Below are positions 36,560 to 49,843 of a stretch of 64,000 nucleotides of DNA, in pieces. Source of the DNA: Pectobacterium zantedeschiae (GTDB taxonomy: Bacteria; Pseudomonadota; Gammaproteobacteria; Enterobacterales; Enterobacteriaceae); NCBI RefSeq assembly GCF_004137795.1, contig NZ_NWTM01000006.1:124001-188000 (forward strand). The letters run 5' to 3'. The position numbers and the translations under genes were made by a program. The notes under the pieces were generated by a model. That model was given only the letters and a program-made list of their open reading frames with translations. It was not told the origin of the DNA and searched no databases. Every line of letters starts with the position of its first letter. Within the stretch, counting starts at the first letter, position 1.

Positions 36560-36904
36560 TCAGCTCACAGAAACAGAAAGGAAAAAGGCGTTGCTGTCAG
36601 CCAGCGCGCCTGTGATATCAACGTACAACTGACCGTCGAATGCGCTGGTCAGGTTGATGGCCGTCAGCGTGATGCGTGGTTCCCAGCGCAGCAGCGCCAT
36701 GTAACACGCTGCCATGACCTGCAATTTCACTGCGGGGTTTTGTGGCTGGTCGATCAGCGCCGACAGCAGCGAACCGTAATCACGGCGCATCACCCGCGAC
36801 CCGATGGGCGTGATGAGAATATCGCGCACGCTCTGGCGAATGTGCTCAAGGTCGCCGAGCGTCTGACCGCTGTCACGGCTCATGCCGAGGTAACGCGCGG
36901 TCAT
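36560..36904 (-). CDS. W: baseplate protein gpW (gp25-like)
   Basis: 114 aa with IRQSVRDILITPIGSRVMRRDYGS, the gp25/lysozyme-like baseplate signature. Overlaps V by 4 bp. Confidence 0.95.
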   Translation of the reverse strand: MTARYLGMSRDSGQTLGDLEHIRQSVRDILITPIGSRVMRRDYGSLLSALIDQPQNPAVKLQVMAACYMALLRWEPRITLTAINLTSAFDGQLYVDITGALADSNAFFLSVSVS

Positions 36905-37536
36905 AGTGGTGCACCCGTTATGCCGCCGCTGTCGCCGGGGTGTTTGTGGGTGTGCAACACTTTGCCATTGGACGACAGCGACCCGCCGGAATGCTCTATG
37001 TTGCCGCTCATTGTGCCGCCTTGTTTCACCTCCAGCGTTCCGGTAATCAGCTTGTTGGTGCAGACCACTTCCGGCGTGTCTAACGTGATGCGCGTGGAGG
37101 CGTTCACGGTGACCAGCGGCGCGGTGGCAGTAATGGATTCAGAGGCGGTGATATCGGCGGTTTTAATCCCGCTGACGGTCAGCGCCCCGGTTGCGGGTTC
37201 GTACTCAATAATCGCACCGTCGGGAAAGCTGATATGTAACGCATCGGCAGACGCCGACGGCGCGGGGTTGTTATCGGAATAGATGCCGGGCAGCACAAAG
37301 GCGGTGTCCAGTTCGCCGCCGATGGACAGGATCAACACCTGTTCACCAATGGACGGTGCCCACCAGTCGCGTGAACGTCCGGCACGGCGCGTCAGCCAGT
37401 TCAACCAGCCCGTAGTCATTTCTCCGGTTTGTACCCGGCACAGGGCATCCGCTATGTTGACGTGGGTCACGACGCCGACACGGATCATATTGCGCAGTAA
37501 GCGCTGGAGTTCAGTCAGGGTAGCTTGTGTTTTCAT
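36901..37536 (-). CDS. V: baseplate spike protein gpV
   Basis: 211 aa, the membrane-piercing spike. N-terminal OB domain then a beta-helix with repetitive Ile/Thr/Val pattern. The iron-binding HxH lies near the C-terminus (LHTHKHPGD). First gene of the V-W-J-I-H-G operon. Confidence 0.95.
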   Translation of the reverse strand: MKTQATLTELQRLLRNMIRVGVVTHVNIADALCRVQTGEMTTGWLNWLTRRAGRSRDWWAPSIGEQVLILSIGGELDTAFVLPGIYSDNNPAPSASADALHISFPDGAIIEYEPATGALTVSGIKTADITASESITATAPLVTVNASTRITLDTPEVVCTNKLITGTLEVKQGGTMSGNIEHSGGSLSSNGKVLHTHKHPGDSGGITGAPL

Positions 37537-37638: not shown

Positions 37639-38697
37639 ATGACGGATTTTTTTAATTCCCATGATGTAAAAGAAGCAATTAACAATTATGCTAATTTTAT
37701 TAATAACATAACTGTAAACTCCGGATTTGAGAGGGAGAAAAATAGAAATCTAGTGACTATATTGAAACATATGAATGAACACTCCGAGGAATGGAATGAA
37801 AATACACAATACACCATAAACTCCGTAGCCGTTGATTTTATTCGTGAATTCGCTAACAAAAGCAATCAAGTCGGTGAAATAGATTTTATTTTTTCCACTG
37901 TGTTCAGGTTTTTGATGGAGTTAAGTTTTAATCAAAAAGATAATCTAAGTGCTGAACTGGATGAATTTAAGTTTTTTACCATTAGAAATAAAGCTCAATT
38001 TTCAGATAAAGCGAAAAAAATAATAGAATACTCATTGAGTTGCTTACCTTTTGATTTAATTAGAAATGAATATCATAATGATGATATTCAATATTTCAAA
38101 AAAGCAGCTAAAGCTGAACGACTGATGAAGGAACGGATCGATGGGTGGGATTTAAGACTGGAGGAGAAAATAGAAAAAGCTGAAGCGTTAAAATCAAAAC
38201 TCGATGAGCAAGAAACGGCTTATAATTTTGTTGGGCTATATCACGGCTATAATACTTTATCGAAAGATAAAAGGTCCGAATTAAATCGAGCTTTTATTTT
38301 TACTTTTTCACTTGCTTTTTTAGTTTTGCTTCCATTTTCTGTGAGTGTTTTTTTAGTATACAAAGAAATGATTAAGTTCGATTCCATAATTTCCTCGTTA
38401 AATCTACTTCCATTCTTTACATTAACATTTATATTTATTTATTATTTTAGAATTTCCCTTGTTAATTACATATCCATAAAGGCTCAAGTGAATCAGATTG
38501 AATTAAGGAAAACACTTTGCAGTTTTATACAAAAATACTCTGAGTATGCGAAAGAAATGAAAGCTAATGATGGAACTTCACTAGAGAAGTTTGAATCAAT
38601 AATTTTTTCAAATATCATGCCCTCAGAAGATAAGATCCCTTCAACCTTTGACGGAATTGAGCAAATAGCGAAATTGATTGAGAGTATTAAAAAATAA
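37639..38697 (+). CDS. cargo protein: coiled-coil with two TM segments, unknown function
   Basis: 352 aa encoded opposite to its neighbours and clearly AT-richer than the tail genes. Layout: soluble N-terminal helical domain (1-150), charged coiled-coil (about 155-195), two TM helices (about 218-240 and 255-275) and a ~75-residue cytosolic C-terminal helical tail. No enzyme motif is visible. Position between S and V is a P2-family cargo locus. The same topology is seen in the 466-aa protein at 58006. A membrane effector for superinfection exclusion or abortive infection is a reasonable guess only. Confidence 0.7.
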   Translation: MTDFFNSHDVKEAINNYANFINNITVNSGFEREKNRNLVTILKHMNEHSEEWNENTQYTINSVAVDFIREFANKSNQVGEIDFIFSTVFRFLMELSFNQKDNLSAELDEFKFFTIRNKAQFSDKAKKIIEYSLSCLPFDLIRNEYHNDDIQYFKKAAKAERLMKERIDGWDLRLEEKIEKAEALKSKLDEQETAYNFVGLYHGYNTLSKDKRSELNRAFIFTFSLAFLVLLPFSVSVFLVYKEMIKFDSIISSLNLLPFFTLTFIFIYYFRISLVNYISIKAQVNQIELRKTLCSFIQKYSEYAKEMKANDGTSLEKFESIIFSNIMPSEDKIPSTFDGIEQIAKLIESIKK

Positions 38698-38737: not shown

Positions 38738-39370
38738 TCAGTTCTGCTTACTCAGTTCATCACACTCTGCACGCTTATCCTTCAATAATCGCATCAACAG
38801 ATTCACGGTATTAACCGCTGACCCGTGTTTGCAATCCAGTGTTGGGAATAGTGCCTGCATATGCGGCCAAAAATCCGTTGTTAGATATTCTACTGATTTG
38901 AATAACGCATTCAGTTGCGAAGTTTGGATATGGTTGAAGATAAGCGGTGTCTCAGGAATATAAAATTCCAGCTCGCAAGGGTGAACGGGCTTTTGCGGTA
39001 GTGGCTGAACGTCTTTTACCTGCGGGTTGAAATAGCAGTCTTCCAACTTCTCGAACACATCCCACGCCTGATCGGTTTCCAGCATCTTGGCGTGACGTGC
39101 TGCTCCGCGTTCTGTCCAAAGGATGAGGCTACGGGCGCGTTTACCGACTAACCCGTTTAAATCGGGTCTGTTCTTAAATTCTTTTAATTCTGAATTGGTT
39201 ATCTTGAAATAATGCTTACCACAAACAAAGCGTTGCGCATTATTGAGGTAGTTGTCAGAAATGTTTTTAGGTTTTGAACCATAAAGCTGAGCTAAGAGTT
39301 CAGTAGTAATGACAGGGACATTGTTGTGTGTGACAACGGAAAGGCTTTCTACAGATAGTTGAGTAGTCAT
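38738..39370 (-). CDS. ORF6N-domain protein, putative antirepressor
   Basis: 210 aa. The N-terminal ~100 residues match the ORF6N DNA-binding domain (PVITTELLAQLYGSK, then NNAQRFVCGKHYFKI and LILWTERGAARHAKML). The C-terminal half is unassigned. ORF6N/KilA-N/BRO proteins are common phage antirepressors. SD GAGG is 5 bases before the ATG and is flanked by a sequence that can fold into a long hairpin (39379-39439), suggesting RNA control of translation. Confidence 0.75.
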   Translation of the reverse strand: MTTQLSVESLSVVTHNNVPVITTELLAQLYGSKPKNISDNYLNNAQRFVCGKHYFKITNSELKEFKNRPDLNGLVGKRARSLILWTERGAARHAKMLETDQAWDVFEKLEDCYFNPQVKDVQPLPQKPVHPCELEFYIPETPLIFNHIQTSQLNALFKSVEYLTTDFWPHMQALFPTLDCKHGSAVNTVNLLMRLLKDKRAECDELSKQN

Positions 39371-39378
39371 GATGACCT

Positions 39379-39439
39379 CGTTAATTTTTTCGAGTTACCA
39401 CAAACGGTGTGGTGCCGGGAGGCTCGAAACGGCTTAACG
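39379..39439 (-). promoter_or_regulatory. SD-adjacent hairpin controlling the ORF6N gene
   Basis: On the minus strand, box B (39439-39423) pairs with box A' (39394-39379) in two helices of 7 and 6 bp around a small internal loop, with an inner hairpin CCACA/TGTGG (39398-39412). A' runs directly into the Shine-Dalgarno, so folding would restrict initiation. Confidence 0.6.
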
Positions 39440-39468
39440 AAACCGCGGACTTATTTCCCTTGCGGGTA

Positions 39469-39537
39469 TTATATTAGTCGCCCTCCCGACATTGAGCGGG
39501 GTGTGGCCGCGCTATGCGTCCACTGAATGACAGGCAT
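39469..39537 (-). CDS. 22-codon leader ORF upstream of the ORF6N gene
   Basis: ATG at 39537, stop at 39469, 22 codons, lying between box A (39571-39588) and box B (39423-39439). No strong SD. Could be a translated leader that couples ribosome movement to the RNA fold, or chance. Confidence 0.35.
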   Translation of the reverse strand: MPVIQWTHSAATPRSMSGGRLI

Positions 39538-39540
39538 AAA

Positions 39541-39600
39541 AAATCCAACACTATCGGGGTTGGTTGTCCGCGTTAAGAGGTTTTCGAGGCCTCGTGGAGC
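39541..39600 (-). ncRNA. candidate C4-like antisense RNA
   Basis: Minus strand: -35 TTGATT (39632-39627), 18-bp spacer, -10 TATGGT (39608-39603). About 60 nt would follow, ending at a CCAAC/GTTGG stem plus T6 near 39541. It contains box A (39588-39571), which is complementary to box B in two 7-bp blocks. Two-box antisense control ahead of an antirepressor is the logic of P1/P7 C4 RNA. Confidence 0.4.
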
Positions 39601-39637
39601 GAACCATAGCGGAAACTGTCAGGTAAAATCAACCGTT

Positions 39638-40087
39638 TTATCTACTTAGATGTTCTATCACCAATCCTTCAACCTCTTTTATCTCCCGATCGCTGAACCC
39701 CAGCAGCGGCCTTGCCTCGTATTGCACATCGGCACTATTACGATTAGGTCGATCGCGCAGGCCGTAATGATGCACCCGCGCCATGCGCTGCACCCGTCCG
39801 ATAAATTCCACGCTGGCCGCATCGACAGTGCCTTTGGCTTTCAGGTATTTTGCGGTTCGCAGTTTCTGGAACATCTGGCGTTTAACCCGACCTTTCTTGC
39901 CCTTGATTGGCTGGGCTTTACGCGGGGCATAGGGGGTGCCGTCCGGTGCTGTCTGCGCTTTGATGTGATGTTGCTGGCTACCGCGCAGGGCTTTTGCCAC
40001 CGTTCCGGCCAGTTTTCGACGGCCTGACGCCGACAGGCTGGCAAGCAGCCCGGCCAGCTTGTCGTCAAACGGTTTCAGCTCATTCAT
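39638..40087 (-). CDS. S: tail completion protein gpS
   Basis: 149 aa, P2 gpS family (phage virion morphogenesis). C-terminal VHHYGLRDRPNR-type segment is conserved. Last structural gene of the O-S operon; overlaps R by 8 bp. Confidence 0.93.
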   Translation of the reverse strand: MNELKPFDDKLAGLLASLSASGRRKLAGTVAKALRGSQQHHIKAQTAPDGTPYAPRKAQPIKGKKGRVKRQMFQKLRTAKYLKAKGTVDAASVEFIGRVQRMARVHHYGLRDRPNRNSADVQYEARPLLGFSDREIKEVEGLVIEHLSR

Positions 40088-40535
40088 TCCACTGGCTCAC
40101 TAATTCACCGTTGATATACATGGAATCCGGGCGCGCTACGGGAACAGGTAACGGCGGTTCTGGCGCGTGGGTCACATGCAATGCCTTGTCTACCTCTTTG
40201 ACGATCACACGCTCAGTGAGTTTCAGGCTGATGCTGATATCACAGCTACCGTTATCGTTAATGTCAGCCAGATAGGTAAAGCCCTTACGATCATGGCCGA
40301 TATCCGGCTGATTTTCACGTACCCACGCCTGAATCGGCACTAATAACCAGTCGATATCGTCAGTAAAATCCGTGATAACCAGATTCAGCGTGTACTGGTT
40401 CTCAAACGACAGCGACGCGGCCAGCGTGGACACTACCGTGCCGCTGTCGATAAAGACATGCAGCATATCCGGGTTATTTTTCAGTACCGGCACCGCGTCA
40501 TTTAAGGCGCTGCGCAGGCTGTTGGGTTTCAGCAT
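40080..40535 (-). CDS. R: tail completion protein gpR
   Basis: 151 aa from MLKPNSLRSALNDAVPVL at 40535; upstream frame lies within lysC. P2 gpR is 155 aa. Confidence 0.92.
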   Translation of the reverse strand: MLKPNSLRSALNDAVPVLKNNPDMLHVFIDSGTVVSTLAASLSFENQYTLNLVITDFTDDIDWLLVPIQAWVRENQPDIGHDRKGFTYLADINDNGSCDISISLKLTERVIVKEVDKALHVTHAPEPPLPVPVARPDSMYINGELVSQWNE

Positions 40536-45391: not shown

Positions 45392-47161
45392 ATGAATACA
45401 GCCATCGATACCACCATCATCAGCGACCCACGGCGACAAGCGGCTTTGCTCTACTGGCAGGGCTTTTCGGTGCGTCAGATTGGGGAAATGCTGAACCAGA
45501 AAACGCCGACCGTTCAGAGCTGGAAGCAGCGCGACGGCTGGGACGCTATCGCCCCGGTATCGCGTGTTGAAGCCAGTCTGGAAGCACGGCTAATTCAGCT
45601 CATCATGAAGACGAAAAAGGAGGGGCATGACTACAAAGAGATTGACCTATTAGGCCGTCAGATTGAGCGGCTGGCGCGGGTGAACCGCTACAGCCAGACG
45701 GGTAACGAGGCCGATCTCAATCCCAACGTGCGCAACCGCAACAAGGGTGAACGCAAGGCACCAGAAAAGAACCTGTTCAGCGAGTCGGCTATCGAGAAGC
45801 TGAACGACATTTTCCTAGATGAAATTTTCGAGTACCAGCGCGGCTGGCATCAGGCCGGGTTACAGCACCGTATCCGCAATATTCTGAAATCGCGCCAGAT
45901 TGGGGCGACGTTCTATTTTGCGCGGGAAGCCCTTATCGATGCGCTGACTACCGGACGCAATCAGATTTTCCTGTCAGCGAGTAAGGCACAGGCGCACGTC
46001 TTTAAAAACTACATCATCGACTTTGCCCGGCTGGTCGATGTTGATCTGAAAGGCGATCCGATGGTGCTCCCCAACGGGGCGCGCCTGTTCTTCCTCGGCA
46101 CCAATATCCGCACCGCGCAGAGCTACACCGGAAACCTGTATCTGGATGAATATTTCTGGATCCCCAAATTTCAGGAGCTGCGCAAGGTCGCCAGCGGCAT
46201 GTCATTGCACAAAAAGTGGCGCTCCACGTATTTCTCCACGCCGTCGAGTCTGGCACACAGCGCCTATCCGTTCTGGTCAGGTGAGCTATTCAACAAGGGA
46301 CGCAGTAACAAATCCGATCACCTGCATCTTGATTTAAGCCACGCGAATTTGTCCGGCGGCGTGCTGTGCGGTGACGGGCAGTGGCGGCAGATTGTGACCG
46401 TGGAAGATGCGCTGGCCGGGGGCTGCAACCTGTTCGACCTCGACCAGCTCACGCTGGAATACAGCCCAGCAGAGTATCAAAACCTGCTGATGTGTGAGTT
46501 TGTCGATGATAAGGCGTCCGTATTCCCGTTTGAGGAATTGCAGCGCTGTATGGTCGATGCGCTGGACGAGTGGGAGGATTTTAACCCCTACGCGCTGCGC
46601 CCGTTTGCCTATAAACCTGTCTGGATTGGTTACGACCCGTCACACACGGGCGACAGCGCGGGCTGTGTGGTACTGGCACCGCCGCAGGCACCGGGCGGTA
46701 AGTTCCGCATTCTGGAGCGCTTCCAGTGGAAAGGCATGGACTTTGCCGCACAGGCCGACGCTATCAAGCTGTTGACGGAAAAATACATCGTTGAATACAT
46801 CGGCATTGATGCAACGGGCATCGGTCAGGGCGTTTATCAACTGGTACGCGGCTTCTTCCCGGCCGCGCGCGAAATCAAATACTCACCGGAAATTAAAACC
46901 GCGATGGTGCTCAAGGCAAAAGACACCATCACCAGCGGACGGCTGGAGTACGACACCAGCCACACCGACATCACCCAATCGTTTATGGCCATACGCAAAA
47001 CCATGACGGCCAGTGGTAACCGCACCACCTATGAAGCCAGCCGCAGCGAGGAAATCAGCCACGCTGACGTGGCATGGGCAACCATGCACGCGCTGTTAAA
47101 CGAACCCCTGACCGCGATTAACGGTCATGTCCCTGTCAGCATTTTGGATTTTAACGAATGA
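45392..47161 (+). CDS. P: terminase ATPase subunit gpP
   Basis: 589 aa large terminase. N-terminal HTH (QGFSVRQIGEML), ATPase segment SRQIGATFYFAREAL, DEYFWIPKF Walker B region, and a C-terminal nuclease-like part with YDPSHTGDS. Divergent from O; overlaps Q by 4 bp. Confidence 0.96.
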   Translation: MNTAIDTTIISDPRRQAALLYWQGFSVRQIGEMLNQKTPTVQSWKQRDGWDAIAPVSRVEASLEARLIQLIMKTKKEGHDYKEIDLLGRQIERLARVNRYSQTGNEADLNPNVRNRNKGERKAPEKNLFSESAIEKLNDIFLDEIFEYQRGWHQAGLQHRIRNILKSRQIGATFYFAREALIDALTTGRNQIFLSASKAQAHVFKNYIIDFARLVDVDLKGDPMVLPNGARLFFLGTNIRTAQSYTGNLYLDEYFWIPKFQELRKVASGMSLHKKWRSTYFSTPSSLAHSAYPFWSGELFNKGRSNKSDHLHLDLSHANLSGGVLCGDGQWRQIVTVEDALAGGCNLFDLDQLTLEYSPAEYQNLLMCEFVDDKASVFPFEELQRCMVDALDEWEDFNPYALRPFAYKPVWIGYDPSHTGDSAGCVVLAPPQAPGGKFRILERFQWKGMDFAAQADAIKLLTEKYIVEYIGIDATGIGQGVYQLVRGFFPAAREIKYSPEIKTAMVLKAKDTITSGRLEYDTSHTDITQSFMAIRKTMTASGNRTTYEASRSEEISHADVAWATMHALLNEPLTAINGHVPVSILDFNE

Positions 47162-48168
47162 AAAAGCGTAAATATCGTAAATCACAAACGGCAGTCGTCA
47201 GCCAGGCACAGCCGATAGAGGCATTCACTTTCGGTGAACCGTCCGCCGTTCTGGATCGCCGCGACATTCTGGACTATGCCGAGTGTATCCATAATGGCCG
47301 ATGGATTGAGCCGCCGATCAGCTTTAGCGGTTTGGCTAAAAGCCTACGCGCTGCGGTACACCACAGCTCACCCATCTATGTGAAACGTAACATTCTGGTA
47401 AGCACGTTTATTCCGCACCCGCTATTGAGTCAGCAGGACTTTAGCCGCTTTGTACTGGATTACTTGGTGTTTGGTAATGCGTTTCTGGAAAAGCGGCTGA
47501 ACCGGATAGGGGGCTTATTACGGCTGGAGTCTAGTCCGGCCAAATACACCCGGCGCGGGGTAGAGGAGGATGTTTACTGGTTCGTGCAGTCATTCAAAGA
47601 GCCGCACCGCTTTGAACCGGGTAGCGTGTTCCATCTGCTGGAGCCGGATATCAATCAGGAAGTGTACGGCCTGCCGGAATACATCAGCTCGTTGAACTCG
47701 GCCTGGCTGAACGAATCGGCGACGCTGTTCCGGCGCAAGTATTACCAGAATGGCGCACATGCGGGTTATATCATGTATGTGACCGATGCGGCGCAAAGCG
47801 GCACAGACGTAGAACGACTACGCTCTGCGATGAATAACACCAAGGGATTGGGGAATTTTAAGAACCTGTTTTTCTATGCGCCTAACGGCAAGCCGGACGG
47901 CATCAAGATTGTGCCGCTCAGCGAGGTGGCAACCAAAGACGACTTCTTTAACATCAAGAATGCCAGCCGTGACGACCTGCTCAGCGCCCACCGCGTACCG
48001 CCGCAGATGATGGGGATTATCCCGAATAATACGGGCGGTTTCGGGGATGTGGAAAAGGCGAGTCAGGTGTTTGTCAGGAACGAGTTGGTACCTTTACAGG
48101 AACGGATGAAAGAGATTAATGAATGGATGAACGAAGAAATTATAAACTTTAACGCATATGCGTTTTAA
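47158..48168 (+). CDS. Q: portal protein gpQ
   Basis: 336 aa (P2: 344). Basic N-terminus, conserved FGEPSAVLDRRDILDY and HRVPPQMMGIIPNNTGGFGD. Forms the dodecameric portal vertex. Confidence 0.96.
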   Translation: MKKRKYRKSQTAVVSQAQPIEAFTFGEPSAVLDRRDILDYAECIHNGRWIEPPISFSGLAKSLRAAVHHSSPIYVKRNILVSTFIPHPLLSQQDFSRFVLDYLVFGNAFLEKRLNRIGGLLRLESSPAKYTRRGVEEDVYWFVQSFKEPHRFEPGSVFHLLEPDINQEVYGLPEYISSLNSAWLNESATLFRRKYYQNGAHAGYIMYVTDAAQSGTDVERLRSAMNNTKGLGNFKNLFFYAPNGKPDGIKIVPLSEVATKDDFFNIKNASRDDLLSAHRVPPQMMGIIPNNTGGFGDVEKASQVFVRNELVPLQERMKEINEWMNEEIINFNAYAF

Positions 48169-48224: not shown

Positions 48225-48971
48225 CTATTTTAAATAATTCGATACGTAATTATCCATGTTGGCTTGTTTAAGTATTTTGCTATTTTTAATGTAATTTAAA
48301 TTATCCCATTCAAAGTAACTGCAAAGTATAACAATTATTGTGAGTAATTTTTCATCTGTCAAATTTATTAGTAATTCATATTGTTCTTCTCTTTCGTTCT
48401 CTTCGACTTTATCATTGATTAATTTAAGGGGAAGATAAAATCTTCTGGCTAAAGAAAAGAAATGTTCATCTACATCCAAGTCCTCAAGCCATTCACAAAT
48501 TCTCTCTTTCCCAATACCTCCATTAACTAATAAACTTAAGCTGTCGTCGATGTAAGTAACTGCATTGCCAGATTTGTATTGAATAAGTGATGTTTCTTCG
48601 GGGGTGTTTTCATGCTGTAATTCATTATTGTGAGGGGCGTCATCGATCGCAATACGTAATTTGTCAAAATTAGATTCTTGAGCTTCGATTAAACTAAAAA
48701 AACGCATTTCAAATTTTTTATAATTTTCTAGTTTCTCCTGTCTCTTTAATTCATGCATTAAAGCCTGATTCGACTGCAACTGTAATCTAACAGAGTGTAT
48801 TAATAAGCATATGGAGATAAAACTCAAGATGGGATTTAATACCCCACCCATAAAATCACCAAATTGCCCCCATACGTCTGCACCTTGTGTACTAAGGTAA
48901 CTTACTCCGAAGTTTAAGGAATACAATCCCCAAACAACTATAATCAACGCTAAACATAAAGTCTTTAACAT
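48225..48971 (-). CDS. putative phage abortive-infection membrane protein (PutAbiC-like)
   Basis: 248 aa: two TM segments (about 4-24 and 42-60) around WGQFGDFMGGVLNPILSF, the hallmark of the putative AbiC family. A ~190-residue helical cytosolic domain follows. AT-rich. Its ATG is 1 base after the stop of the upstream gene with no SD of its own, so translation is coupled. Located between cos and Q, an insertion place for cargo in P2 relatives. Abortive infection is inferred from family naming, not shown. Confidence 0.72.
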   Translation of the reverse strand: MLKTLCLALIIVVWGLYSLNFGVSYLSTQGADVWGQFGDFMGGVLNPILSFISICLLIHSVRLQLQSNQALMHELKRQEKLENYKKFEMRFFSLIEAQESNFDKLRIAIDDAPHNNELQHENTPEETSLIQYKSGNAVTYIDDSLSLLVNGGIGKERICEWLEDLDVDEHFFSLARRFYLPLKLINDKVEENEREEQYELLINLTDEKLLTIIVILCSYFEWDNLNYIKNSKILKQANMDNYVSNYLK

Positions 48972-48972
48972 C

Positions 48973-49791
48973 TTATTGTACCGTATGAACTAGATATTTT
49001 ATTGTTTCGCCGCTGTTAATTCTGACACGGCTAACTGTTAGCCTAAGATAAATACGCCCTTCGGAAGATGGAGAGTTATTTACATGTAAGTTTGCTGAGA
49101 TCATTTTCTTTTGACTTGACATAATTATACGTAGAGGACTATAAAAGCCAAAAGCAACTGTTTCATCTTCTCCTTCAAGTACAAGTCTTCCATTACCAGT
49201 TCTAGCATTGAATCTCGTGATGTAAGCTCTAATTTCCTCTGTTTTTTTTGCTACCTTTGACTTAAAGAGGTTTGTTGCAGTAGCCGTGTCTAATTCAATA
49301 ACTTTCTTTTTGTCATGCGCTCTTTGTTTGAAATTAAGTTCTATGTTGTAATTTTTTTTGACATTTATCTCATGCATCCTTTTTAAGGGTGCTCTTATTC
49401 TTCCTATTAACTCATCTTCAATATCTGACAAGCCTTTGACAACTTCTTCTGCTTCATTAGATAATTCTCGCGTTTCTAAATAAAGAGATTGTGAGATAAA
49501 AAAACTCATCACTTCATTAAAAACAGGTTTGGATATTCTACGAAGTTCATAAATTAATTCAGGCTCATTAATCACTAAGTCAAAGTTCTGCCCATAAGAA
49601 CCTGTAAAATTCTTTTTTAGTACAGCTCGTGCAGGATTTACATGTGTACGTCTTTTGATGATTACTTTCCTTAGAATAGCCTCAGCCAAAAGACAAGTAA
49701 CTTCAGCTGTTCCGCCGAGAGTTGCTATGCCATATTCCATATCAACTTCATCATCACCGCTTTTGATTATGACATCGTAATTAACACGCAT
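48973..49791 (-). CDS. unknown partner of the AbiC-like protein
   Basis: 272 aa from the ATG at 49791 (AAGGAAAGG just upstream; a TTG ten codons earlier is less likely). N-terminal ~90 residues look like an alpha/beta domain, the middle is helical and charged, and the last ~80 residues look beta-rich. No TM, no catalytic motif that I recognise. Cotranslated with the membrane protein; plausible sensor or regulator of it. Confidence 0.7.
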   Translation of the reverse strand: MRVNYDVIIKSGDDEVDMEYGIATLGGTAEVTCLLAEAILRKVIIKRRTHVNPARAVLKKNFTGSYGQNFDLVINEPELIYELRRISKPVFNEVMSFFISQSLYLETRELSNEAEEVVKGLSDIEDELIGRIRAPLKRMHEINVKKNYNIELNFKQRAHDKKKVIELDTATATNLFKSKVAKKTEEIRAYITRFNARTGNGRLVLEGEDETVAFGFYSPLRIIMSSQKKMISANLHVNNSPSSEGRIYLRLTVSRVRINSGETIKYLVHTVQ

Positions 49792-49843
49792 TACCTTTCC
49801 TTGTGAAAGTTGATTGCACAAAAAATTAAGATTAATCTCACTC

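What the first reader, a model, noticed from the sequence alone, without database searches (positions are those of the whole stretch)
39371..39637. Two-box RNA switch ahead of a prophage antirepressor, C4-like but wired differently
Seen directly: on the minus strand, box A (39588-39571) is complementary to box B (39439-39423) in two 7-bp blocks, and B is also complementary to A' (39394-39379) in 7+6 bp. A' touches the Shine-Dalgarno of the ORF6N gene. B:A' would hide the ribosome site; A:B would free it. Box A lies in a possible ~60-nt RNA with its own promoter and terminator, and a 22-codon ORF lies between. P1/P7 C4 RNA uses two boxes to silence an antirepressor; here the antisense appears to target the anti-SD, which would activate. 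I know of no described P2/186-like second immunity locus of this form.
Basis: partly seen in the sequence, partly recalled or inferred. Interest (0 to 1): 0.75.

Follow-up and report, generated by a model that had tools for sequence, protein, structure and literature searches.

The report
C4-type antisense RNA silencing prophage antirepressor
A P2-like prophage carries a small structured RNA, of a family so far filed as a plant-pathogen small RNA, that appears able to cover the start signal of a neighbouring antirepressor gene, in the way the classical P1 and P4 phage immunity RNAs work.

Summary
The three boxes are real, at the stated coordinates, and beyond chance. B spans the P3 hairpin loop and the strand after it. 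Both are complementary to box A' at the edge of the ORF6N Shine-Dalgarno and to box A upstream, which a terminator-like element follows. In 49 RF02221 loci, and in 88 further unique instances, RNAs match their own upstream and downstream flanks far better than other loci's flanks, although the words differ; control stretches show little or nothing of this. So the likely wiring is that of C4 (P1), CI (P4) and IsrK/STnc1160 (Gifsy-1): B is the antisense repressor, A its second target or decoy. 'Wired differently' is not supported; 'B:A' hides the ribosome site, A:B frees it' has a precedent in Gifsy-1. The gene product is 72% identical over 132 residues to Gifsy-1 STM2616. Apparently unreported in the passages read: RF02221 as a family is a C4-type silencing cassette, ahead of varied antirepressors and sometimes the toxin SymE. 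No experiment was done.

The parts
39603..39632 (-). possible promoter of the A transcript (TTGATT-18-TATGGT)
   Evidence: 8 of 12 matches; TTGA(C/T) at this place in 13 of 16 distinct related leaders. Weak in the window itself; not listed.
39571..39588 (-). box A (equivalent of a1b1 / seqA / IsrK)
   Evidence: two 7-bp blocks with B, 4 of 5000 shuffles as good; upstream complementarity kept across loci
39538..39563 (-). terminator-like hairpin and T run after box A
   Evidence: CCAAC-N9-GTTGG-ATTTTTT; GTTGG-(A/C)-T6 in 13 of 16 distinct related leaders; terminator-like by a lenient rule, without a shuffled control, in 31 of 48 RF02221 loci; not listed
39469..39537 (-). 22-codon leader ORF, probably not a conserved peptide
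   Evidence: sequence; length 4-46 codons in relatives, absent in one
39406..39490 (-). RF02221 (sRNA-Xcc1) structured RNA, proposed C4-type antisense repressor
   Evidence: 71.8 bits, gathering 53, E 4.3e-11; single match in the genome
39423..39439 (-). box B: P3 loop, 3' strand of P3 and the strand between P3 and P1 (b' and a' equivalents)
   Evidence: complementary to both flanks
39410..39413 (-). ACCA directly after stem P1, an RNase P-like cue
   Evidence: sequence; [AG]CC at this place in 42 of 49 loci
39379..39394 (-). box A' (a2b2 / seqC equivalent), touching the Shine-Dalgarno
   Evidence: 0 of 5000 shuffles as good
39376..39379 (-). Shine-Dalgarno GAGG of the ORF6N gene
   Evidence: sequence
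38738..39370 (-). ORF6N-domain antirepressor-like gene, 210 aa
   Evidence: Pfam ORF6N 2.3e-19; PHROG anti-repressor 1.6e-63; 72% identity over 132 aa to Gifsy-1 STM2616

Best explanation
The locus is a self-contained silencing cassette of the C4/CI type. A leader transcript starts upstream of box A. Many transcripts stop at the terminator just after A and give a short A RNA. Read-through transcripts contain the RF02221 RNA, which is cut out, probably by RNase P at its 5' end. This RNA (B) then binds, with its P3 loop and the adjacent strand, to A' at the Shine-Dalgarno of the ORF6N gene and keeps the antirepressor silent in the lysogen. A carries the same complement, so it competes for B: in abundance, or in cis on an uncut transcript, A takes B away and lets the antirepressor be made. 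Because the paired words differ from locus to locus while complementarity is kept, they may also set an immunity specificity. Shown here: the RNA family match, the boxes, their complementarity and its maintenance across loci, the gene. Inferred: transcription and termination in this strain, processing, binding in trans, the direction of the effect, the role of A, and the specificity.
For: RF02221 match over B. In 49 loci, own B pairs with own upstream flank at a mean of -23.8 kcal/mol against -18.5 (sd 0.40) for permuted partners, and downstream at -18.2 against -15.3 (sd 0.37); 0 of 20000 permutations as good on either side. P3-loop complement of 6 nt or more on both sides in 30 of 49 loci against a mean of 2.5 and a maximum of 7 in 60 permutations. 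Second set of 93 unique B regions: a 7-mer complement on both sides in 48 of 93 against a mean of 3.06 and a maximum of 9 in 100 permutations, with 38 distinct words in the 48; without the 5 that are also in the first set, 45 of 88 against a mean of 3.17 and a maximum of 9 in 200. C4 loci give the same kind of result (n=34); shifted stretches and the 5' or P2 part of the RNA give little or none. P1, P4 and Gifsy-1 show the same order of parts. Gifsy-1: IsrK in trans raised anrP translation about 140-fold, and an ~80-nt species (STnc1160) is processed from read-through RNA (PMC4825925, passages). RF02221 RNAs exist as short RNAs elsewhere: 88 nt by end mapping and ~100 nt by Northern in Xanthomonas (PMC2996969, passages); 89 nt, 40293 transcriptome reads, ribosome coverage value 0.02 in E. 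coli O157:H7 EDL933 (PMC5331693, passages; that paper's threshold for non-coding is below 0.197).
Against: No expression data for this strain. The window's promoter match is weak and the consensus scan lists neither promoter nor terminator. In the predicted co-fold of B with the A' region the box pairing is not the minimum-energy outcome, whereas with A it is. Specificity inside one genome is not shown: against five C4 RNAs of the same genome the window RNA is the best partner of its own A' site, but it pairs better with two C4 downstream regions (-29.1 and -24.6 against -19.5), and one C4 RNA pairs better with the window's upstream region than its own RNA does (-27.7 against -26.2); own RNA is best in 5 of 6 upstream but only 2 of 6 downstream columns. 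Several loci lack a clear partner on one or both sides (for example L011, L015, L061), and in 19 of 49 the strict both-sides loop test fails, partly through mis-placed hairpins. One control, a stretch 700 bases upstream, had a small own-partner effect on one side (33 of 5000). In Gifsy-1, co-expressing STnc1160 made the IsrK growth arrest stronger, not weaker (PMC4825925), so a simple repressor-decoy scheme is not proven even there.
Confidence: 0.8

Rival explanations
1. P4-like attenuation: B binds box A on the nascent leader and drives termination before the RNA and the gene are transcribed, so the main control is transcriptional and self-limiting; A is a target, not an activator.
For: A is followed directly by a terminator-like element present in 13 of 16 distinct related leaders; P4 CI works through seqA and seqC by premature termination (PMC4825925, passages; PMC10111431, passages).
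Against: In 32 of the 48 loci with a shared word the A' word lies in or at a purine-rich ribosome site with a start codon just after, which termination alone does not need.
Confidence: 0.35
2. One reading: A is a trans-acting activator RNA that frees the ribosome site by binding B; B acts only in cis as an anti-Shine-Dalgarno strand.
For: IsrK of Gifsy-1 activates anrP in trans (PMC4825925); own B pairs more strongly upstream than downstream in 42 of 49 loci (the upstream target searched is longer, 250 against 150 nt); the predicted fold of the whole leader pairs A with B and leaves A' in a small hairpin.
Against: B sits in an RNA known as a free short RNA in other bacteria, with an RNase P-like 3' cue in 42 of 49 loci, so a purely cis role is unlikely.
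Confidence: 0.2
3. RF02221 acts mainly on distant host or plant mRNAs (virulence small RNA) and the flanking complementarity is incidental.
For: Earlier work places sRNA-Xcc1 under HrpG/HrpX control and proposes distant targets (as told in PMC12189769, passages).
Against: Flank complementarity is kept in locus after locus with different words; control stretches show little or none of it.
Confidence: 0.04
4. Chance repeats in an AT-rich leader.
For: 4 of 5000 upstream shuffles reach the observed score.
Against: 0 of 5000 shuffles on both sides; maintenance across loci.
Confidence: 0.01

Closest known systems
C4 antisense RNA of phages P1/P7 (Rfam RF01695, with c4-a1b1 RF03163, clan CL00128)
   Same: three stems with P3 loop and following strand as antisense boxes; complementary box at a ribosome site and a second one upstream next to a terminator-like element; antirepressor control downstream (C4 structure and boxes as described in PMC5320573, passages)
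   Different: the window RNA does not match the C4 model, even at E 5; its P2 domain (AATATAATACCC-GCAA-GGGAAATA) looks unlike that of P1 C4, by eye only
P4 CI RNA with seqA and seqC
   Same: antisense core between two complementary boxes (PMC4825925); the C4 and isrK models match P4
   Different: the published effect in P4 is transcription termination ahead of replication genes, not cover of an antirepressor start
Gifsy-1 isrK - STnc1160 - orf45 - anrP
   Same: same order; STM2616 product 72% identical over 132 aa to the ORF6N protein; IsrK has its own promoter and terminator
   Different: its core RNA matches C4, not RF02221; anrP depends on orf45 translation
sRNA-Xcc1 (Rfam RF02221)
   Same: the window RNA is a full-length match (71.8 bits)
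   Different: published as a trans-acting, virulence-linked or integron-borne RNA without, in the passages read, the flanking-box function; listed without a clan
c4-2 (Rfam RF02944)
   Same: by name another C4-like family; the name was seen only in a table of PMC11701678
   Different: does not match the window; not examined further
P22 sar RNA
   Same: phage RNA that pairs with antirepressor mRNA (PMC12197685, passages)
   Different: recalled as a plain antisense transcript without a C4-like structure; not compared here

Membership tests
RF02221 sRNA-Xcc1 | covariance model score at or above gathering (53 bits) | tested here: met
   71.8 bits, positions 1-87 of 87
RF01695 C4 | covariance model score at or above gathering (45 bits) | tested here: not met
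   no match at gathering in the window, none at E up to 5 in 38900-40100; P1, P4, Gifsy-1 and PhiR5_2 do match
RF01695 C4 | P1-P2-P3 fold with P3 loop and following strand as antisense boxes | tested here: met
   Rfam alignment of RF02221 and loop/tail mapping; this is resemblance, not membership
RF01695 C4 | a1b1-like target upstream and a2b2-like target at the ribosome site | tested here: met
   complementarity; the RF03163 model itself does not match the window
RF01695 C4 | 5' maturation by RNase P | not testable with these tools
   only a sequence cue: ACCA after P1; [AG]CC in 42 of 49 loci
RF01695 C4 | represses antirepressor synthesis in the lysogen | not testable with these tools
   gene context only
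RF01394 IsrK | covariance model match in box A | tested here: not met
   Gifsy-1 and P4 match
ORF6N antirepressor proteins | ORF6N domain at or above the Pfam cut-off | tested here: met
   69.9 bits, cut-off 27.8
ORF6N antirepressor proteins | inactivates a phage repressor | not testable with these tools
   only relatedness to STM2616/AnrP and to PHROG anti-repressor families

The most novel reading that the evidence does not exclude
The whole sRNA-Xcc1 family is a general plug-in silencer: a C4-type antisense RNA flanked by a decoy box and a ribosome-site box, set ahead of interchangeable dangerous genes, such as phage antirepressors of several unrelated domains and the toxin SymE. The RNA in Xanthomonas integrons and Xylella islands would then be the cis-linked antidote of its neighbour and not primarily a virulence RNA.
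Probability: 0.6. Interest if true: 0.65.

Novelty: new variant of a known kind. Interest (0 to 1): 0.5.

Why it matters
It turns an Rfam family with an unclear, virulence-coloured annotation into a testable immunity device: each locus names its own target. It adds a further RNA family doing the work of P1 C4 and P4 CI in many Proteobacteria, including a P2-like prophage, and offers a concrete mechanism for the sRNA-Xcc1/symE integron cassette whose regulation PMC12444791 left open ('divergent regulatory mechanism', passage).

Tried and rejected
C4 membership of the window RNA: rejected. IsrK or c4-a1b1 membership of box A: rejected. A functional 22-codon peptide: not supported (in EDL933 an RF02221 RNA has a ribosome coverage value of 0.02; that copy was not shown to be this leader). 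A covariance model of our own: only 3 pairs were kept, probably because the variable P1 ends were not aligned; it was not used. An alignment of 18 loci was made but no model was built from it. Within-genome specificity against five C4 copies and in phage PhiR5_2 (own RNA best in 2 of 3 columns on either side): inconclusive. The plasmid search for a SymE-linked relative gave no match, and a second one (14 records) held no Xanthomonas record, so named Xanthomonas and Xylella loci were not tested.

Rows left out: searches used the window and 48 of the 58 loci L004-L061; L020-L028 (weak matches) and L034 (oversight) were left out. The automatic P3 finder mis-placed the hairpin in at least L038, L047, L049 and L060. 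One search used 40 of the 49 RF02221 loci (those with full flanks; the window was not among them) and 34 C4 loci. In one search, 53 of 59 loci gave a downstream ORF by the rule used; 48 of these were scanned with Pfam, leaving out L012, L013, L024, L026 and L028. Of the 93, 85 gave an ORF and were scanned. Searches capped or filtered: searches used stricter Infernal filters.

Full report
What is there. On the minus strand, in the gap between the P2-type tail genes S (39638-40087, Phage_tail_S) and V (36901-37536, baseplate and spike domains), lies a leader followed by a 210-residue ORF6N-domain gene; a 352-residue gene on the other strand fills the rest of the gap. In phage P2 the same gap holds the nonessential Orf30, so this looks like a cassette in a known insertion spot. 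The three boxes of the finding are exactly where stated: A = CTCGAAAACCTCTTAACG, B = CGTTAAGCCGTTTCGAG, A' = CTCGAAAAAATTAACG. Two-block matches of this quality arise in 4 of 5000 shuffles upstream, 0 of 5000 downstream and 0 on both sides.

The part that was missed. The gathering-threshold Rfam scan of the whole window gives RF02221, sRNA-Xcc1, at 39490-39406 with 71.8 bits (cut-off 53); box B lies inside it. In the Rfam alignment B spans the P3 hairpin loop, the 3' strand of P3 and the single strand between P3 and the closing stem P1; loop and strand are open for pairing. It is the only RF02221 match in the genome. C4 (RF01695) does not match here, although the same genome holds five C4 matches elsewhere.

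Comparison with C4, CI and IsrK. The C4 model matches P1, P4, Gifsy-1 and phage PhiR5_2 (4 of 6 records tried); RF02221 matches PhiR5_2, a Vibrio and a Bordetella phage (3 of the same 6). In P1 and Gifsy-1 the Rfam family c4-a1b1, described as the a1, b1 targets of C4, lies just upstream of C4, and isrK matches upstream of C4 in Gifsy-1 and in P4. Read by eye, the P1 locus shows GTTAGTGCGGAC upstream, the C4 RNA, and GTTAGTGAGG downstream; the window has TTAACGCGGAC and TTAACGAGGTC in the same places. The order box - terminator - antisense RNA - box at the ribosome site is thus that of known systems. RF02221 is listed without a clan.

Test of the pairing across loci. RF02221 was found in 26 of 369 genomes of the class and 47 of 394 of the order, counting matches at E up to 0.001, the window's own genome included in both. 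In 49 loci the antisense region pairs with its own upstream flank at a mean of -23.8 kcal/mol, against -18.5 (sd 0.40) with partners permuted among loci, and with its own downstream flank at -18.2 against -15.3 (sd 0.37); none of 20000 permutations is as good on either side. In strict terms, 30 of 49 loci carry a 6-nt or longer complement of the P3 loop on both sides, against a mean of 2.5 and a maximum of 7 in 60 permutations. A second set, drawn by a conserved motif from named genomes and viral contigs, gave 93 unique antisense regions: 48 of 93 have a 7-mer complement on both sides, against a mean of 3.06 and a maximum of 9 in 100 permutations, with 38 distinct words. Five of the 93 are also in the first set; without them it is 45 of 88, against a mean of 3.17 and a maximum of 9 in 200 permutations. 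Thirty-four C4 loci behave alike (0 of 5000 on either side). Controls: stretches 600 bases downstream, the first 26 nt of the RNA and its P2 region show no clear own-partner effect (334 to 2071 of 5000 permutations as good); a stretch 700 bases upstream shows a small one on one side (-16.4 against -15.4, 33 of 5000) and none on the other (971 of 5000). Loci related by descent are not independent, so the permutation counts are not exact probabilities.

Where the target lies. In 32 of the 48 second-set loci with a shared word, the A' word lies in or at a purine-rich ribosome site with a start codon just after, as in CAAACAGGAGCAGACTTATG. Among 16 distinct leaders related to the window's (21 rows, 5 exact duplicates), GTTGG-(A/C)-T6 is present after A in 13 and TTGA(C/T) stands at the -35 place in 13. 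By a lenient rule without a shuffled control, a terminator-like element follows A in 31 of 48 RF02221 loci, and GCGG closes A in 34 of 48. The window's own promoter match is weak. The 22-codon ORF starts right after the T run but is 4 to 46 codons long in relatives and absent in one.

What the gene is. The product matches PHROG anti-repressor families (best 1.6e-63) and is 72% identical over 132 residues to Gifsy-1 STM2616, which by gene order is the AnrP of PMC4825925 (an inference). A match to the leader is found in 160 of 5426 E. coli genomes (125 at 80-90% identity, 35 at 60-80%; 136 cover at least 80% of the query); the 60 rows listed lie ahead of genes annotated Bro-N, AntA/AntB, KilA-N, ORF6N or Ant, or have no annotated feature under the match. 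So the leader travels with different genes. Pfam on 48 downstream proteins: P22_AR_C 9, Bro-N 9, P22_AR_N 8, KilA-N 4, SymE 4, ORF6C 4, AntA 2, Rha 1, ORF6N 1, plus single helix-turn-helix hits. On 85 from the second set: P22_AR_C 22, Bro-N 22, AntA 11, KilA-N 11, P22_AR_N 10, ORF6N 10, Rha 5, ORF6C 5, and one each of ORF11CD3, SymE and YdaS. One protein can count under two names. Of ten class-level proteins scanned singly, four are SymE and the others have no match above a Pfam cut-off.

How it most likely works. B is made as part of a read-through leader, is cut out (a tRNA-like [AG]CC follows P1 in 42 of 49 loci; RNase P cuts C4 according to PMC5320573, passages), and covers the antirepressor start. 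A has the same complement and mostly the stronger predicted pairing (42 of 49, with the longer target as a caveat), so it can compete for B; in the predicted fold of the intact leader A indeed pairs with B. In Gifsy-1, IsrK in trans raised anrP translation about 140-fold and STnc1160 is processed from read-through RNA, but co-expressing STnc1160 with IsrK made the IsrK growth arrest stronger (PMC4825925, passages). Whether A here activates as a decoy or is a termination target as in P4 cannot be decided from sequence. Orthogonality between cassettes of one genome is not shown.

Is it in print. Within the library searched, 18 papers name sRNA-Xcc1 and 2 name RF02221 (both are also among the 18). 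Passages of seven of the 18 were read (PMC2996969, PMC12189769, PMC12444791, PMC11932112, PMC5331693, PMC12370729, PMC11701678); the other 11 were seen only as listing. None of the passages read says that the family is a C4-type antisense RNA with flanking targets. The one paper holding both 'sRNA-Xcc1' and 'C4 antisense RNA' is PMC12189769, whose table puts C4, isrK and sRNA-Xcc1 within 400 bases of each other in a Xylella genome. The 2011 sRNA-Xcc1 paper is not held. ORF6N, antirepressor and small RNA together gave no paper. That C4 and isrK profiles find CI and seqA relatives is in print (PMC10111431, passages). Most subscription journals and all bioRxiv preprints are outside the library, so the novelty claim is limited.

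Verdict. The new element is the RNA core: RF02221 as a further family doing this work, ahead of several kinds of dangerous genes.

Noticed in passing
G000 C3:2657443-2657530, C3:3073663-3073750, C3:3048888-3048974, C4:47195-47285 and C4:47837-47927: The same genome holds five C4 matches, two of them some 550 bases apart.
   Followed up: partly
window 37639-38697 (+): 352-residue protein in the P2 Orf30 spot between the ORF6N gene and V, opposite strand to both; PHROG of unknown function, weak PADLOC hit to an oligonucleotide cyclase (5e-4).
   Followed up: partly
window 48225-49821 (-): Two accessory-looking genes next to the plus-strand gene 47158-48168; unknown PHROGs, the 248-residue protein with a weak ZorB/MotB-like hit (4.6e-4).
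   Followed up: partly
G539, G601, G683, G746, G451, G581: RF02221 copies lie a few hundred bases or less apart in several genomes, as if cassettes stack up.
   Followed up: no
L003/L079/L082 (Escherichia phage PhiR5_2): One phage carries two RF02221 copies and one C4; each RF02221 copy lies ahead of a gene annotated antirepressor, the second of these followed by IbrA and IbrB.
   Followed up: partly
L066 (OW849252.1 7240-12476): The same leader precedes a gene annotated hypothetical on a conjugative IncL/M plasmid; equal matches on two other plasmids are annotated KilA-N.
   Followed up: no
L004, L006, L029, L030: RF02221 lies directly upstream of SymE-family toxin genes, with an A' word next to GGA(G). 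In L006 it stands right before the start codon; in the others the first start found lies upstream of the word, so the real start is probably a later in-frame ATG.
   Followed up: partly
window 39370-38738 (-): The first 132 residues align with Gifsy-1 STM2616 at 72% and the rest does not, as if the C-terminal part had been swapped.
   Followed up: no
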